Source of the DNA: Paludibacteraceae bacterium
GTDB lineage: Bacteria > Bacteroidota > Bacteroidia > Bacteroidales > Paludibacteraceae
Assembly (NCBI GenBank): GCA_017451525.1
Contig: JAFTOD010000005.1
Coordinates: 124,001 to 188,000 of the forward strand
Direction of reading: 5' to 3'
DNA: 64,000 nt
Part shown: positions 2,339 through 53,589 of the stretch, piece after piece
Numbering within the stretch: position 1 is the stretch's first letter
How the letters are laid out: each line of letters begins with the position of its first letter
The notes under the pieces: generated by a model
What the model saw: only the letters and a program-made list of their open reading frames with translations
The model's database searches: none
What the model was told of the DNA's origin: nothing
Position numbers and translations under genes: made by a program

Positions 2339-2388
2339 AATAATTCTAATATTGATAGGTTAATGATTGCTTAAAGGTAGCATTATGT

Positions 2389-2432
2389 TACGTATATCCT
2401 ACGTATATGGTACGTATATCCTACGTAATTGA
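2389..2432. repeat. 11-bp tandem repeat, locus A (4 units)
   Basis: Units: TACGTATATCC (2389), TACGTATATGG (2400), TACGTATATCC (2411) and TACGTAATTGA (2422). The repeat is in the intergenic region before ileS, inside the predicted leader of the small minus-strand gene. The rest of the 321-base gap (2339-2659) holds two divergent promoters and the ileS leader. Confidence 0.85.
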
Positions 2433-2442
2433 AAAGGGATTG

Positions 2443-2659: not shown

Positions 2660-5600
2660 ATGAAACATTTTAACGAGTACAAACAACTGAATTTGGCAGA
2701 ATTGAGCAAGGAGATCCTTGCGCAATGGGAGAAGGAAGATTTGTTCCACCAGAGTATCGAAACACGCGAAGGATGCCCTTCGTTCCTCTTCTTTGAAGGT
2801 CCTCCTTCGGCAAACGGTATGCCAGGTATTCACCACGTGATGGCTCGTACAATCAAAGATACATTCTGCCGCTTCAAGACCATGCAGGGCTATCAAGTGA
2901 AGCGCAAAGCAGGTTGGGACACCCACGGTTTGCCTGTAGAGTTGGGCGTAGAGAAACTGCTGGGTATCACCAAAGAGGACATCGGCAAGAAAATCAGCGT
3001 GGACGAATACAACGCTGCCTGCCGTCGCGAGGTGATGAAATACACCCAAGAATGGACCAACCTCACCAAACAAATGGGCTATTGGGTGGACCTTGATAAT
3101 CCATATATCACCTACGATAATAAGTTTATCGAGACACTTTGGTGGCTGCTCAAAGAGTTGTACAAGAAGGGATATTTGTACAAGGGTTACACTATCCAAC
3201 CTTATTCGCCCGCAGCAGGTACGGGTCTGTCCTCGCACGAATTGAACCAACCCGGCTGCTACCGCGATGTCAAAGATACAACCTGTACGGCGCAGTTTAA
3301 GCTATTAGGCGATAAGGCGATGAGGTTATTAGGCGAGGAAGCTCCTCTCTACGCTCTCGCGTGGACGACTACCCCTTGGACGCTTCCGAGCAATACGGCA
3401 TTGTGCGTGGGACCAAAGATTGACTACGTCATCGTGAAAGGCGAAAACCCATACACCAAGATTAAGGCATACTATTTGCTCGCTGAGGCACGTTTGGCTG
3501 CCTATGCCAAAGAACTCGGCGAAGCACCAGAAGTGCTTTGGCGCGGCAAAGGTACCGATCTTGAGGGTATCCAATACGAGCAACTTATCCCTTGGGCTAA
3601 CCCCGGAGAAGGAGCATTTAAGATTATCTTGGGCGACTATGTGACCACCGAAGATGGTACGGGTATTGTGCATATCGCTCCTACTTTTGGTGCAGACGAT
3701 GCGTTTGTGGCGAAGAAGGCGGGTGTACCCGGCATGGTGTTCATCACCAAGAAAGGCGAACAACGCCCAATGGTGGATATGACAGGTAAGTTCTTCAACC
3801 TCGAAGACCTTGATGAGGAGTTTGTGAAGAACCAAGTACACGTAGAGGCATACGAGCCATGGGCAGGTCGCTACGTGAAGAACGCCTACGACCCTACTCT
3901 CACCGACAAAGATGAGACACTTGATATCAGTATTTGTATTTGGCTCAAAGGCGAGAACAAGGCGTTCCGCATCGAGAAGCACGTCCACAACTACCCACAC
4001 TGCTGGCGTACAGACAAGCCAGTCCTCTACTACCCACTCGACTCGTGGTTTATCCGCTCCACCAAAGCGCGCGAGGAGATGATGGCACTCAACGACACCA
4101 TCAACTGGCAACCTGAATCCACTGGTACAGGTCGCTTTGGTAAGTGGCTCGAGAACCTCAATGACTGGAACCTCTCCCGCTCACGCTACTGGGGTACACC
4201 ACTCCCAATCTGGCGTACCGAGGACGGACAAGAGGAACTATGCATCGGCTCTATTGCCGAACTCATGCAGGAGATTGACAAGTCTATCGCTGCGGGCTTC
4301 ATGACCGAGAACCCATGGCCAAAACATATCGTAGGCGACTACTCGAAAGAGAACTACGACCCAAGTGTGATTGACCTGCACCGTCCGTACGTGGATAATA
4401 TCATCCTCTGCTCTCCTTCGGGCAAACCAATGAAGCGCGAACTTGACCTCATTGACGTGTGGTTTGACTCAGGCGCAATGCCTTACGCACAAAACCACTA
4501 CCCATTCGAGAATCAAGATGCACCACGCACCGCCGACTTCATCTCCGAAGGTGTGGACCAAACACGCGGTTGGTTCTTCACCCTCCACGCTATCCATACG
4601 ATGATTGAGGGCAGCGTGGCATATAAGAATGTCATCAGCAACGGACTCGTACTCGATAAGAACGGCAACAAAATGTCCAAACGCCTCGGCAACGCTGTCG
4701 ATCCATTCGGCGCGTTGGACAAGTACGGAGCAGACGCAGTACGCTGGTACATGCTCACCAACTCCAGCCCATGGGAGAACTTGAAGTTCGACCCAGAAGG
4801 TGTGGACGAGATTCGCAGAAAGTTCTTCGGCACATTGTATAATACCTATGGCTTCTTTGCGCTGTACGCCAATGTGGACGGTTGGAACAAGGAACAAGGA
4901 ACCAAGAGCCAAGATTTGCAAGAGATTGATAAGTGGGTATTGAGCAAACTCAACTCCCTCATCAAAGAGGTGACTGCCGCATACGAGGCATACGAGCCAA
5001 CAAAAGCAGGTCGCGCTATCTCGGACTTTGTACAAGATGACCTGAGTAACTGGTACGTGCGCCTCAACCGCAAGCGTTTCTGGGGTGGCGAGATGGATGC
5101 CGACAAGCAAGCAGCATACTACACCCTCTACACCTGCCTCAAGACGGTTGCCCAACTCATGGCGCCTAACGCACCATTCTATGCCGACCGCCTCTACCGC
5201 GACCTCGTGGGCGAAACCGTACATTTGAGCACATGGCCTGTAGCAGATGAGGCACTGATTAACCTCGACCTCGAGCGCAGTATGTCGCTTGCACAACAAG
5301 CCACATCTATGATCCTCTCACTGCGCAAACGTGCAGAGAAGAACGTGCGCCAACCACTCCAAAAAGCTGTTATCCCAGCGCCAGACCAAGAGACCCTTGA
5401 GGCACTCCTCCGCGTACAAGACCTCATCAAGAGCGAGGTGAATGTCAAGGAGTTGGTCATCGTGCGTGCCGAGGATTCGGAAATCAAACTCGTGAAGAAA
5501 ATTAAACCAAACTTCAAGGTACTCGGCAAGAAAGTGGGCGGTATGATGAAGCAACTGGCTGCTGCTATCGCACAAATGAGCCAAGATGATATTGCAGCGT

Positions 5601-6001
5601 TTGAAACTGCGGGTACGTTCACCCTTTGCGGCTACGCACTTGTCGCAGAAGACGTGGACATCATCACCGAGGATATGCCAGGTTGGCTCGTGGCAAACAA
5701 TGGCACTATCACCATTGCCCTTGACATCGAACTCACCCCTGCGCTGATTGAAGAAGGTATCGCGCGCGAACTCATCAACCGTATCCAGAACTTGCGCAAG
5801 TCCTCTGGCTTGGAGATCACCGACCGCATCGCTGTGCAAATGGAGAACCGTGAGGAGATTGCCGCAGCAGTAACCAACTGCAACGACTACATCGCTTCGC
5901 AAGTGTTGGCTACTTCACTCGAGTTGGTAGATGATCTGGGTACAGAGCAAGTATTAGAGATGGATGGATATACAGTTAAGTGTGTAATAAAAAAAGCATA
6001 A
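2660..6001 (+). CDS. ileS: Isoleucyl-tRNA synthetase
   Basis: Charges tRNA-Ile with isoleucine in the cytoplasm. The protein has 1113 residues, in the range for the long Bacteroidota IleRS. The HIGH-equivalent signature is in GPPSANGMPGIHHVMAR (residues 47-63), and the KMSKR loop is NGNKMSKRLGNAV (KMSKR at 671-675). The insertion (editing) domain lies between them, with WTTTPWTLPSNTALCVGP at its start and TEDGTGIVHIAPTFG inside. The anticodon-binding domain starts near residue 750. Coding sequence uses many C-ending codons. ATG at 2660 follows a strong promoter and a roughly 100-base leader with a GC-rich hairpin. A lipoprotein gene begins 4 bases after its stop and may be co-transcribed. Confidence 0.98.
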   Translation: MKHFNEYKQLNLAELSKEILAQWEKEDLFHQSIETREGCPSFLFFEGPPSANGMPGIHHVMARTIKDTFCRFKTMQGYQVKRKAGWDTHGLPVELGVEKLLGITKEDIGKKISVDEYNAACRREVMKYTQEWTNLTKQMGYWVDLDNPYITYDNKFIETLWWLLKELYKKGYLYKGYTIQPYSPAAGTGLSSHELNQPGCYRDVKDTTCTAQFKLLGDKAMRLLGEEAPLYALAWTTTPWTLPSNTALCVGPKIDYVIVKGENPYTKIKAYYLLAEARLAAYAKELGEAPEVLWRGKGTDLEGIQYEQLIPWANPGEGAFKIILGDYVTTEDGTGIVHIAPTFGADDAFVAKKAGVPGMVFITKKGEQRPMVDMTGKFFNLEDLDEEFVKNQVHVEAYEPWAGRYVKNAYDPTLTDKDETLDISICIWLKGENKAFRIEKHVHNYPHCWRTDKPVLYYPLDSWFIRSTKAREEMMALNDTINWQPESTGTGRFGKWLENLNDWNLSRSRYWGTPLPIWRTEDGQEELCIGSIAELMQEIDKSIAAGFMTENPWPKHIVGDYSKENYDPSVIDLHRPYVDNIILCSPSGKPMKRELDLIDVWFDSGAMPYAQNHYPFENQDAPRTADFISEGVDQTRGWFFTLHAIHTMIEGSVAYKNVISNGLVLDKNGNKMSKRLGNAVDPFGALDKYGADAVRWYMLTNSSPWENLKFDPEGVDEIRRKFFGTLYNTYGFFALYANVDGWNKEQGTKSQDLQEIDKWVLSKLNSLIKEVTAAYEAYEPTKAGRAISDFVQDDLSNWYVRLNRKRFWGGEMDADKQAAYYTLYTCLKTVAQLMAPNAPFYADRLYRDLVGETVHLSTWPVADEALINLDLERSMSLAQQATSMILSLRKRAEKNVRQPLQKAVIPAPDQETLEALLRVQDLIKSEVNVKELVIVRAEDSEIKLVKKIKPNFKVLGKKVGGMMKQLAAAIAQMSQDDIAAFETAGTFTLCGYALVAEDVDIITEDMPGWLVANNGTITIALDIELTPALIEEGIARELINRIQNLRKSSGLEITDRIAVQMENREEIAAAVTNCNDYIASQVLATSLELVDDLGTEQVLEMDGYTVKCVIKKA

Positions 6002-11529: not shown

Positions 11530-11584
11530 TTACCTATCTATTACCTGACAATTACGGCAACGACACGGCAACGAGACGGCAACG
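11530..11584. repeat. 11-bp tandem repeat, locus B (5 units)
   Basis: Units: TTACCTATCTA (11530), TTACCTGACAA (11541), TTACGGCAACG (11552), ACACGGCAACG (11563) and AGACGGCAACG (11574). It starts 15 bases after the M3 peptidase stop. Very similar ACGGCAACGAS units occur at 48108-48140, just after mnmG. No separate terminator hairpin was seen in the 106-base gap. Confidence 0.8.
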
Positions 11585-11620
11585 ACAGCAGATAATACCA
11601 AAAGAAACACAACATATCAC

Positions 11621-24456: not shown

Positions 24457-24540
24457 TCGTTTTCTAACCTCTCACACCACCATACAGTAGTAGGTGTGAT
24501 AGCGTCGAGAGAGATGATATTCGCAAGTGCTATAAATGAG

Positions 24541-24584
24541 ATAGTAATAACATACTAATCACATAGTAATAGCATAGTACATAC
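24541..24584. repeat. 11-bp tandem repeat, locus C (4 units)
   Basis: Units: ATAGTAATAAC (24541), ATACTAATCAC (24552), ATAGTAATAGC (24563) and ATAGTACATAC (24574). It lies 26 bases beyond the 3' end of the minus-strand nfnAB gene, in a convergent intergenic region. Confidence 0.8.
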
Positions 24585-24610
24585 AGCAGTTTGTGCGATA
24601 AAAAAAGAAC

Positions 24611-31055: not shown

Positions 31056-31109
31056 TTTTGGAAGGGAAATTTGTGATTTTTAGATGAAATTGTGAAAGTA
31101 TTTGATAAA

Positions 31110-31207
31110 TACGGTATTACTACGGTAAGAATATGGTTATCTATCGTGTATCTAACGTATATCTATCGTGTATCTATCGTATATGTAACGTAGTTGATAG
31201 CGTAATG
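31110..31207. repeat. 11-bp tandem repeat, locus D (about 9 units)
   Basis: Units in order: TACGGTATTAC (31110), TACGGTAAGAA (31121), a 10-base TATGGTTATC (31132), TATCGTGTATC (31142), TAACGTATATC (31153), TATCGTGTATC (31164), TATCGTATATG (31175), TAACGTAGTTG (31186) and ATAGCGTAATG (31197). Its central part is nearly the same as locus F (53467-53521). Confidence 0.85.
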
Positions 31208-31227
31208 GTAGAGGAGTTTAGATAAGA

Positions 31228-31262
31228 AAAAGAGGATGTACCACTCGGTTACATCCTCTTTT
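31228..31262 (-). terminator. malQ terminator
   Basis: A perfect 13-bp stem (31228-31240 with 31250-31262; core AGAGGATGTA/TACATCCTCT) with a 9-base loop, followed on the minus strand by a T-run. It begins 19 bases after the malQ stop. Confidence 0.85.
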
Positions 31263-48085: not shown

Positions 48086-48140
48086 ACCTACTAACTACGA
48101 GAGAAACACGGCAACGAGACGGCAACGACACGACAACGAG
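48086..48140. repeat. 11-bp tandem repeat, locus E (5 units)
   Basis: Units: ACCTACTAACT (48086), ACGAGAGAAAC (48097), ACGGCAACGAG (48108), ACGGCAACGAC (48119) and ACGACAACGAG (48130). The last three match locus B almost exactly. It begins 13 bases after the mnmG stop, a position like that of locus B after the M3 peptidase. Confidence 0.8.
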
Positions 48141-48190: not shown

Positions 48191-48206
48191 TGTTTCACGT
48201 GGAACA
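48191..48206. promoter_or_regulatory. parS: parS centromere site (ParB binding)
   Basis: TGTTTCACGTGGAACA; its complement, TGTTCCACGTGAAACA, is a perfect match to the bacterial parS consensus TGTTnCACGTGAAACA. ParB binds such 16-base sites near the origin to start chromosome segregation. It sits in the non-coding gap between mnmG and apt. parA and parB are not in the window. Confidence 0.88.
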
Positions 48207-50613: not shown

Positions 50614-50780
50614 GAATTGAATATTTTTGAGGAGCGTGGAACATGACACAGGCAAAATGATGTGTTTTGTTAGAAAAAATAACAGTCGTTTGTAATATTT
50701 TCTTTTTCTCATTTGTCTAATGGGTGTAGTCGCAAAGAAGCGATAGAAAACGATTTGTTAAACTTATTAAATTATGTATT

Positions 50781-52250: not shown

Positions 52251-53006
52251 TTATTCTATCTCGTATGATTGTATTAGATAATTCTCATCTTCGTTCGTAT
52301 AGACGGGTGTAATCAGTTCTTGGTTATACATAGCCACGTGTGTAGTATTATGTGTTGGATTTTCTCTCGCACTCTGAAGTTGATTTCCTTCCATTTGTGT
52401 ACAAGAGAAACAATATCTGTTGTTATCACTAAATTTTCTAATTCGAGTTAGGAAATTAGCGAATCTTCCCCAACGAGTATGTACAGGATTTAAAACTATA
52501 TCTACATTATTAAGCAACTTCTCAAATTGACTATGTTGTTCAGGTTGGGTGTCTTTTAGGCGAAACTCTGCACATCCTGTAGTTCCTTTTAAAATATTAT
52601 TTTCGCCACATTGAACTATAAGGAAACGCTTGCCATTGACATCAAATTGTCGACGTCGCTTAAATTCTTTTAATAGCGCATCAACAGTATCTTCGTTTAT
52701 TTCATTCGCTGTTGAAATTAGTTGATGACGAAGTTCTCTAATAAAACCATTTTGAAGTAAATATAATCGATTACCACTTAAACCATTTGATTCTTTAAGT
52801 TCAAATAACGCAGTAATATTCTTGTTATATTTGCGAAATTTTAACAAAGCATATAAGTCATCCTCAGATTTTAATACATGCTCGCTAAACATAATAAAGT
52901 CAGCCTTACTGGATGTAAGAATCATTGAAATAATATCCATGCGATTTGTACATTCTGCAGCTGTAAGACGCTGATACTTTGGAAATGAAACTAATTGAAT
53001 AATCAT
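52251..53006 (-). CDS. Nitrilase-fold-like orphan protein
   Basis: 251 residues, no signal peptide. By eye the order of elements fits the nitrilase fold: an N-terminal strand and helix followed by DFIMFSEH (Glu42 in the position of the catalytic Glu), a paired-strand turn (GNRLYLLQNGFI), then NGKRFLIVQCGENNIL (Cys133 at the nucleophile position), and later VDIVLNPVHTRW with an arginine-rich helix (FLTRIRKF) and NNRYCFSC. The catalytic Lys cannot be placed with confidence. No substrate can be named. Base composition is more AT-rich than in its neighbours, and no neighbouring gene shares its strand. Its predicted leader of about 320 bases contains a large nested inverted repeat (53132-53269). 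A stand-alone, possibly acquired gene. Confidence 0.6.
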   Translation of the reverse strand: MIIQLVSFPKYQRLTAAECTNRMDIISMILTSSKADFIMFSEHVLKSEDDLYALLKFRKYNKNITALFELKESNGLSGNRLYLLQNGFIRELRHQLISTANEINEDTVDALLKEFKRRRQFDVNGKRFLIVQCGENNILKGTTGCAEFRLKDTQPEQHSQFEKLLNNVDIVLNPVHTRWGRFANFLTRIRKFSDNNRYCFSCTQMEGNQLQSARENPTHNTTHVAMYNQELITPVYTNEDENYLIQSYEIE

Positions 53007-53131
53007 GGTAGTATGTTTTTTTGCCTACTCTTCTTCGGATTTTCGGCATACTCCGTTTAAATTGTTGATTTATAGTATATTATTTTGTTCGTACATACAT
53101 ACAAAAAGCGTGAACTTTCGTTCGCTTCAAT

Positions 53132-53363: not shown

Positions 53364-53466
53364 AAAAATCGCTTTTAGGGGCGATTTTTTACTCAGCAAA
53401 TTAGCTCCGAGCACTAAATCAGTAACGGGATTGATAGTTGCATTTCAGGGTACACCTATACTAATC

Positions 53467-53521
53467 TATCGTGTATCTATCGTATATGTATCGTATATGT
53501 ACCGTATATCTACCGTAGTTG
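53467..53521. repeat. 11-bp tandem repeat, locus F (5 units)
   Basis: Units: TATCGTGTATC (53467), TATCGTATATG (53478), TATCGTATATG (53489), TACCGTATATC (53500) and TACCGTAGTTG (53511), then ATAGCG. Nearly the same as the central part and right end of locus D. It lies between the divergent promoters of the nitrilase-like and GNAT genes. Confidence 0.85.
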
Positions 53522-53589
53522 ATAGCGAAAAGATAAAGGTAGAAGTGGAGGAATATAGAGAGAAGAAGTGGAAAAGAAAATAGGTTGTA

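What the first reader, a model, noticed from the sequence alone, without database searches (positions are those of the whole stretch)
31110..31207. Six intergenic loci of 11-bp tandem repeats with constant period and changing sequence
Arrays at 2389-2432, 11530-11584, 24541-24584, 31110-31207, 48086-48140 and 53467-53521 are each built from units of 11 bp. The unit sequence differs between loci (TACGTATATCC, ACGGCAACGAG, ATAGTAATAGC, TATCGTATATG), but the length is kept, with only one 10-base unit noted. Eleven bases is close to one turn of DNA, so each array presents the same face to a protein. They occur only between genes, at about one per 10 kb. I know of no described element that matches this; selection on period instead of sequence would be unusual.
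Basis: seen in the sequence. Interest (0 to 1): 0.75.

Follow-up and report, generated by a model that had tools for sequence, protein, structure and literature searches.

The report
Interchangeable 11-base repeat arrays between genes
This gut bacterium and its close relatives carry many short DNA arrays between genes, in steps of exactly 11 bases (about one turn of the helix) but in several unrelated sequences, which suggests evenly spaced landing sites for a protein that is not yet known, though chance duplication is not ruled out.

Summary
All six arrays exist, intergenic, with exact 11-bp units, but in four unit types rather than six: A1 (2376), A2 (31133, 53458), B (11540, 48096), C (24527). 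In 20 further 20-kb stretches, intergenic DNA (37.9 kb) holds 15 strict lag-11 segments, against 2 at lag 10 and none at 12 or 13; coding DNA (362 kb) holds 2. Congeners (Paludibacteraceae, gut and rumen MAGs) share the excess, beside an equal or larger one at period 7.

Family A is a dispersed element of about 110 bp (39 places in the genome): leader, 3-9 units, trailer. Its core ATAYACG hardly changes while the 4 bases between cores do: in units 3-4 of 14 ortholog pairs, 2 of 168 core sites differ against 20 of 112 middle sites. At two spacers sister species have an 11-bp array with other units. Elsewhere arrays are replaced by 7-bp repeats or a palindromic module (mnmG), or have shrunk to one unit (G014).

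Best reading: iteron-like direct binding sites on one face of the helix, exchanged by recombination. No binding protein was found, and neutral minisatellite turnover is nearly as likely. Nine library searches listed no description.

The parts
2376..2434 (-). Family A1 element; 4 units of TACGTA-NN-ATA read on the minus strand, between a class I tRNA synthetase gene (probably ileS, +, 2660-6001) and a small minus-strand ORF
   Evidence: identical in sister species G077
11540..11587 (+). Family B array, unit ACGGCAACGAS, just after an M3 peptidase gene
   Evidence: one change in G077
24527..24585 (.). Family C array, unit CACATAGTNAT-like, between convergent genes
   Evidence: 24541-24579 identical in G077, one change at the left edge; same family by eye at L319:12346 and in G159 and G014
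31100..31215 (-). Family A2 element: leader (right end), five 11-bp units 31138-31192, trailer (left end)
   Evidence: locus L216
48096..48141 (+). Family B array directly after mnmG; shared with G055; replaced by 7-bp repeats or a palindromic module in nine other relatives
53458..53524 (-). Family A2 array; orthologous spacers carry A2 in G077 and G115, a different 11-bp array (unit ACACGCACAAT) in G159 and a single unit in G014

Best explanation
The arrays are dispersed, non-coding intergenic elements that work like iterons. Each array offers several direct copies of a short recognition sequence, one per 11 bp, so that a DNA-binding protein can line up along one face of the helix near promoters. 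In family A the recognition sequence is ATAYACG and the other 4 bp are linker. Unit number changes by whole units (slippage or unequal exchange), and whole arrays are exchanged by recombination between dispersed copies. Both processes leave the 11-bp register intact while linker bases, and over longer times whole unit sequences, change; arrays can also be lost. Shown by sequence: exact period, intergenic location, core constraint, unit gain and loss, different arrays at orthologous spacers. Inferred: the protein, its binding to one face, the exchange mechanism, and any effect on transcription or nucleoid organisation.
For: Exact 11-bp period and intergenic excess. Core constraint between species: units 3-4 read by position, with no unit alignment or extension rule, in 14 of 16 ortholog pairs (those with a flank below 92% identity): core 2/168, middle 20/112, first position 11/28 (p about 4e-7). 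In the 10 pairs that share no member: 1/120 against 17/80. With all aligned units the figures are 9/414 and 49/276, but there the search pattern and extension rule favour the core. Among paralogs, units 3-4 of 30 own elements: 1 change in 360 core bases. In the A1 set, eight positions show 0 changes in 480 bases of units 2-4 and two inner positions vary freely; 60 of the 480 were fixed by the search pattern, and assignment to A1 used four of the positions by majority. G005 and G011 (78% and 74% MnmG identity) have the same unit and variable positions: 5 changes in 312 over 39 units (loci found by an A1 pattern). Trailer in register in 24 of 26. Different 11-bp units at the same spacer: A2 versus ACACGCACAAT, and A1 versus TAGGTKATTC. 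14 of 30 A loci lie between divergent genes against 27% of intergenic length (p 0.02), with no orientation bias between codirectional genes (7 against 6). Promoter-like boxes seem to cluster on both sides (by inspection, no control run). No compensatory RNA pair among 19 in ten A2 elements.
Against: No binding protein was identified or tested. Family A copy number runs from 1 to 39 between congeners (completeness 62-98%), which does not look like a conserved regulon. The 12 of 15 window genes with a Pfam match share no theme. At the mnmG spacer only G055 of 10 relatives has the 11-bp array. In G014 the 53458 spacer keeps one unit where G159 has about five, and G074 has no array where G159 has one, so arrays can be dispensed with. 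AT/GC content is not phased within 17 unit types (p 0.5), so general bendability gets no support. Chains of gradually changing neighbouring units (L047:11313-11481; G077 C9:117139-117328) look like ordinary tandem duplication.
Confidence: 0.43

Rival explanations
1. Neutral or selfish minisatellites. Short intergenic duplications expand by slippage, keep their period because whole units are gained and lost, and spread by recombination. Period 11 (and 7) reflects a mutational preference, not function.
For: Neighbouring units grade into one another in long in-phase chains, and G077 has about five more units than G000 in one such chain. One array has collapsed by four units in G014. 7-bp repeats are as common as or commoner than 11-bp ones in congeners (10 against 7 in the 32 stretches not picked for family A) and are seen in other Bacteroidales. 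Whole sets of units differ between some orthologs. Prokaryotic repeats of 4-11 bp units are normally or weakly over-represented (PMC4060949, passages read).
Against: Core positions differ far less than linker positions between orthologs and paralogs, and the same core persists in species with 74-78% MnmG identity. Unrelated unit families should not share period 11 with none at 12 or 13 in the own-genome sample unless mutation strongly prefers 11.
Confidence: 0.37
2. Non-autonomous transposable element (MITE-like). The arrays are binding sites for a transposase that moves leader-array-trailer as a unit.
For: 39 places in the genome with conserved leader and trailer and little conservation beyond about -22 and +90; copy number differs widely; formal likeness to BrickBuilt of Porphyromonas gingivalis (PMC4596501, passages read).
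Against: No terminal inverted repeats in 30 elements: the longest inverted match of head to tail averages 5.07 against 5.11 shuffled. No Y1/RAYT transposase in the genome; other transposases were not searched. No clean empty site was seen; the two spacers examined that lack A carry another 11-bp array. The comparison over-counts presence, because most sequences compared were fetched for their A element.
Confidence: 0.1
3. The arrays act in RNA, as structured leaders or protein-binding transcripts.
For: Some elements lie close downstream of a promoter-like box (L073, L220). In 2 of the 12 single strands folded, z was about -2.
Against: For A2 the consensus fold is weak (-2.5 kcal/mol) with no compensatory pair among 19 (A1 was not folded as an alignment); no orientation bias towards neighbouring genes; no Rfam match at the arrays at gathering score.
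Confidence: 0.05

Closest known systems
BrickBuilt minisatellite/MITE of Porphyromonas gingivalis (PMC4596501, passages read)
   Same: Bacteroidales; intergenic; tandem array, often with leader and tail; 19 non-identical copies in strain ATCC 33277 against 39 family A places here
   Different: 23-nt units and one family there, 11-bp units and many families here; BrickBuilt has terminal inverted repeats and none were found here
parC centromere of plasmid R1, bound by ParR (PMC9426499, passages read; further details recalled)
   Same: ParR of R1 needs at least two 11-bp repeats; [quoted passage not shown] a model for how an 11-bp array could be read
   Different: A single plasmid locus beside parM/parR; here tens of chromosomal places, no ParR found; none was sought beyond the 15 window genes
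Long simple sequence repeats with 5-11 bp units (Mrazek et al. 2007, known here only from its summary in PMC4679880 and from recall)
   Same: Short-unit tandem repeats
   Different: Here units within an array differ at set positions, the core is conserved across species, and one period is shared by unrelated families
TAACTGA heptamer arrays of Beggiatoaceae, Cyanobacteria and some Bacteroidetes (PMC4679880, passages read)
   Same: Dispersed intergenic short direct repeats with a suggested regulatory role
   Different: 7 bp, one fixed sequence, in the best-studied genome mostly just upstream of start codons

Membership tests
BrickBuilt / MITE | dispersed, multi-copy, intergenic element with tandem core, leader and tail | tested here: met
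   39 places for family A; conserved leader and trailer in the 30 read
BrickBuilt / MITE | terminal inverted repeats | tested here: not met
   head-tail inverted matches equal shuffles, 30 elements
BrickBuilt / MITE | 23-nt repeat unit | tested here: not met
   units are 11 bp
BrickBuilt / MITE | target-site duplication or clean empty site | tested here: inconclusive
   duplications not tested; the two spacers examined that lack A carry another array
REP/BIME with RAYT | palindromic hairpin unit | tested here: not met
   no covarying hairpin in A2; 10 of 12 single-strand folds not exceptional against shuffles
REP/BIME with RAYT | Y1 transposase (RAYT) in the genome | tested here: not met
   PF01797: 0 matches in own genome, found in 5 of 14 control genomes; genome 84% complete
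parC-type centromere | array of 11-bp direct repeats | tested here: met
parC-type centromere | adjacent parM/parR operon | tested here: not met
   of 15 window genes scanned, most next to or near arrays, 12 have Pfam matches and none is ParM or ParR; 3 have no match; neighbours elsewhere in the genome not scanned
parC-type centromere | bound by a ribbon-helix-helix protein | not testable with these tools
   needs binding assays
LSSR 5-11 (simple sequence repeats) | tandem units of 5-11 bp | tested here: met
LSSR 5-11 (simple sequence repeats) | no position-specific constraint within units (my reading of a neutral repeat) | tested here: not met
   family A only: core 2/168 against middle 20/112 in units 3-4

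The most novel reading that the evidence does not exclude
A genus-wide system in which helical register itself is the inherited trait. Intergenic spacers near promoters carry arrays of one helical turn per unit, and many unrelated unit families, each presumably with its own or a related reader protein, replace one another at the same spacer without losing the 11-bp step. Other Bacteroidales may do the same with two-turn, 22-bp palindromic units.
Probability: 0.22. Interest if true: 0.85.

Novelty: new variant of a known kind. Interest (0 to 1): 0.6.

Why it matters
Dispersed intergenic repeats with a tandem core are known, but a genus using one period with many unit sequences, with a conserved core and free linker in the best-sampled family, and with different units at the same spacer, would separate selection on helical phase from selection on sequence. 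It gives a concrete target (ATAYACG every 11 bp) for finding a DNA-binding protein in a poorly studied group of rumen and gut bacteria. It also predicts that respacing the units should destroy function. If the neutral reading is right, it is a clear case of a mutational bias towards 11-bp duplications, which would itself need explaining.

Tried and rejected
Period as an artefact of codon or low-complexity sequence: rejected, since coding DNA and shuffles lack it. RNA structure: no covariation in A2. RAYT or other Y1 transposase: none found. Reverse-transcribed, telomerase-like arrays: the two reverse transcriptases found look like a diversity-generating retroelement (judged by eye from its neighbours, recalled) and a DRT4 defence protein, so there is no support, though the genome is 84% complete. 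Bendable wrapping DNA with phased AT and GC: not seen. Terminal inverted repeats: none. Match to plasmids or phages: none for 31,085-31,230. 'Spacer swapping' at mnmG between G000 and G055: those two share the array, but G055 is distant in three genes upstream of mnmG (62-78%), so the mnmG-uvrC block may have been exchanged whole. The gap test on ortholog pairs is weak because array lengths were built in steps of 11; the trailer register is free of that. The unit-extension rule and the search pattern favour core positions; one search repeats the test on units 3-4 by position only, though the loci were still found by an A pattern, so orthologs without a recognisable A array are missing from it.

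Results against my reading: family A copy number 1 to 39 among congeners; 9 of 10 relatives without the 11-bp array at mnmG; collapse to one unit in G014 and absence in G074 at one G159 array; period 7 at least as common as 11 in congeners; 4 of the 36 congener stretches had been picked at family A hits (without them lag 11 falls from 11 to 7, and 15,829 bases of the rest read N); backwards controls of the J pattern matched in G159 (20), G055 (3) and G014 (2), of the E pattern once in G152.

Papers: PMC4596501, PMC4679880, PMC4060949 and PMC9426499 were seen as passages only; all others only as search listings. Nine searches were run; none listed a paper that I recognised, by title and start of abstract, as describing 11-bp arrays of this kind in Bacteroidales; the library holds only open-licence papers. 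The Bacteroidetes minus-7 box TAnnTTTG and the diversity-generating retroelement layout are recalled.

Full report
What was checked. The window is G000:C4:124001-188000 of a 1.84-Mb, 84%-complete genome. Its nearest named relatives by MnmG are two Paludibacteraceae MAGs from water buffalo (91% identity, whose scan may leave out records of this genome or very near it). TRF finds the six arrays with period 11 or 22. The units are exact 11-mers by eye.

The period is real. In 400 kb outside the window, 26 of 127 non-overlapping TRF arrays have period 11, the largest class. A fixed-lag scan of the same 20 stretches gives 15 intergenic segments at lag 11 in 37.9 kb, none at lags 12 and 13, 2 at lag 10 and 5 at lag 7; coding DNA (362 kb) gives 2. 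With the window it is 19 and 2, and five shuffles give none. Of the 40 stretches are from congeners; in the 32 of these not picked at a family A hit, lag 11 gives 7, lag 10 none, lag 12 one and lag 7 ten, in 31.9 kb of intergenic DNA. Sixty-nine of the 80 MnmG loci (the 11 nearest left out) give 3 at lag 11, 14 at lag 7 and 9 at lag 22 in 124 kb. So the peak at 11 belongs to this genus; the one at 7 is wider and in congeners at least as strong.

Families. The window holds A1 (2376), A2 (31133 and 53458), B (11540 and 48096) and C (24527). Elsewhere there are E, F, G, H, J and others at 11 bp. Whole-genome pattern searches in G000: family A 39 places, B 8 hits at 4 loci, E 29 hits, J 12 hits, each with 0 in the backwards control for G000; overlapping hits mean that E and J loci are fewer than hits. 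In other genomes the J and E controls were not all empty.

Anatomy of family A. Thirty of the 39 places were read with flanks in one orientation. Conservation runs from about -22 to about +90 around the array and fades outside. Unit number is 3 to 7 by the counting rule in G000; one element of G055 shows 9 by eye. The trailer motif stays in register with the leader modulo 11 in 24 of 26 scorable elements. In units 3-4 of the 30 elements, read by position, the six core positions show 1 change in 360. In A1 the two inner positions take G, A, C and T freely, and G005 and G011 share unit and pattern of variation.

Evolution. Against the sister species G077 (HSPs mostly 91-97% identical), the arrays at 2376 and 24541-24579 are unchanged, the one at 11540 has one change, and the one at 53458 has changed much but keeps its register. 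In 14 of 16 ortholog pairs of family A, units 3-4 by position differ at 2 of 168 core sites and 20 of 112 middle sites; all aligned units give 9 of 414 and 49 of 276. Some orthologs carry a quite different set of units (L210 against L293), and nearly the same set as in L293, one base apart, occurs at another G000 locus (L216), which points to exchange between copies. At the 53458 spacer G159 has an ACACGCACAAT array and G014 a single such unit; at the L214 spacer G074 has a TAGGTKATTC array with a similar leader. G087 has a J array in a much longer stretch at the 53458 spacer, where synteny is doubtful. At mnmG, G000 and G055 have family B, G077 a module with palindromes seen by eye, G152 and G074 a 7-bp GTTTAGT array and six others imperfect 7-bp GGTTAAA-like repeats. 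In the more distant congeners visible, whose output was cut, the stop codon or a short spacer precedes the parS-like site, in G062 with another 7-bp repeat.

Mechanism. The position-specific constraint, exact step, lack of RNA covariation in A2, lack of orientation bias and position near promoter-like boxes fit direct binding sites read on one face of the DNA. The protein is unknown and binding is untested. Gradual unit chains, loss of units or arrays and variable copy number fit neutral or selfish turnover, which may be the source of the arrays even if some are used. I put the binding-array model at 0.43 and neutral turnover at 0.37.

Comparison. BrickBuilt is the nearest kind, but terminal inverted repeats were tested and not found, so I do not file these as BrickBuilt or as MITEs. 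ParR/parC of R1 is a working analogy for 11-bp direct repeats, not a membership. No paper listed in nine searches describes this, as far as titles and abstract starts show.

Limits. Draft genomes; a simple ORF mask for coding; one genome per species, so no strain data; 464 kb of the genome for period statistics and 596 kb for the array list; ortholog pairs found through an A pattern; family E, J and B constraints not measured.

Noticed in passing
window 48191-48206: parS-like palindrome TGTTTCACGTGGAACA downstream of mnmG; a parS-like site is also seen there in nearly all congener loci shown (L251 had none; part of the output was cut).
   Followed up: partly
window 53022-53056, minus strand: Rfam match to DUF805b RNA (44.1 bits), just upstream of the minus-strand gene 52254-53006.
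   Followed up: no
window 50614-50780: The spacer after uvrC is strikingly conserved between species (AATAACAGTCGTTTGTAATATTTTCTTTTTCTCATTTGTCTAATGGGTGTAGTCGC), unlike the array spacers; possible leader or small RNA.
   Followed up: no
L185:4687-4803, L190:1470-1635, L196:14524-14644, L184:9817-9892, L202:2378-2466: Other Bacteroidales carry intergenic arrays of 22-bp units (two helical turns), palindromic by eye, each genome with its own sequence.
   Followed up: partly
L277 (G000:C4, about 341,606) and L278 (G000:C5, about 96,634): A likely diversity-generating retroelement (target gene and layout judged by eye) and a DRT4-type reverse transcriptase beside a restriction specificity-like gene (the latter by eye).
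   Followed up: partly
L079/L049 against L304: G000 carries about 1 kb of extra DNA starting right at the trailer end of an A1 element whose array is identical in G077.
   Followed up: no
L043, L044, L054, L056, L058: By eye, families E and G occur together in larger modules that share AAAAAGTGCTTTTTGTTAAGATT-like segments near the 11-bp arrays.
   Followed up: no
G159: The backwards control of the J pattern matched 20 times in G159, which suggests another repeat there that was not looked at.
   Followed up: no
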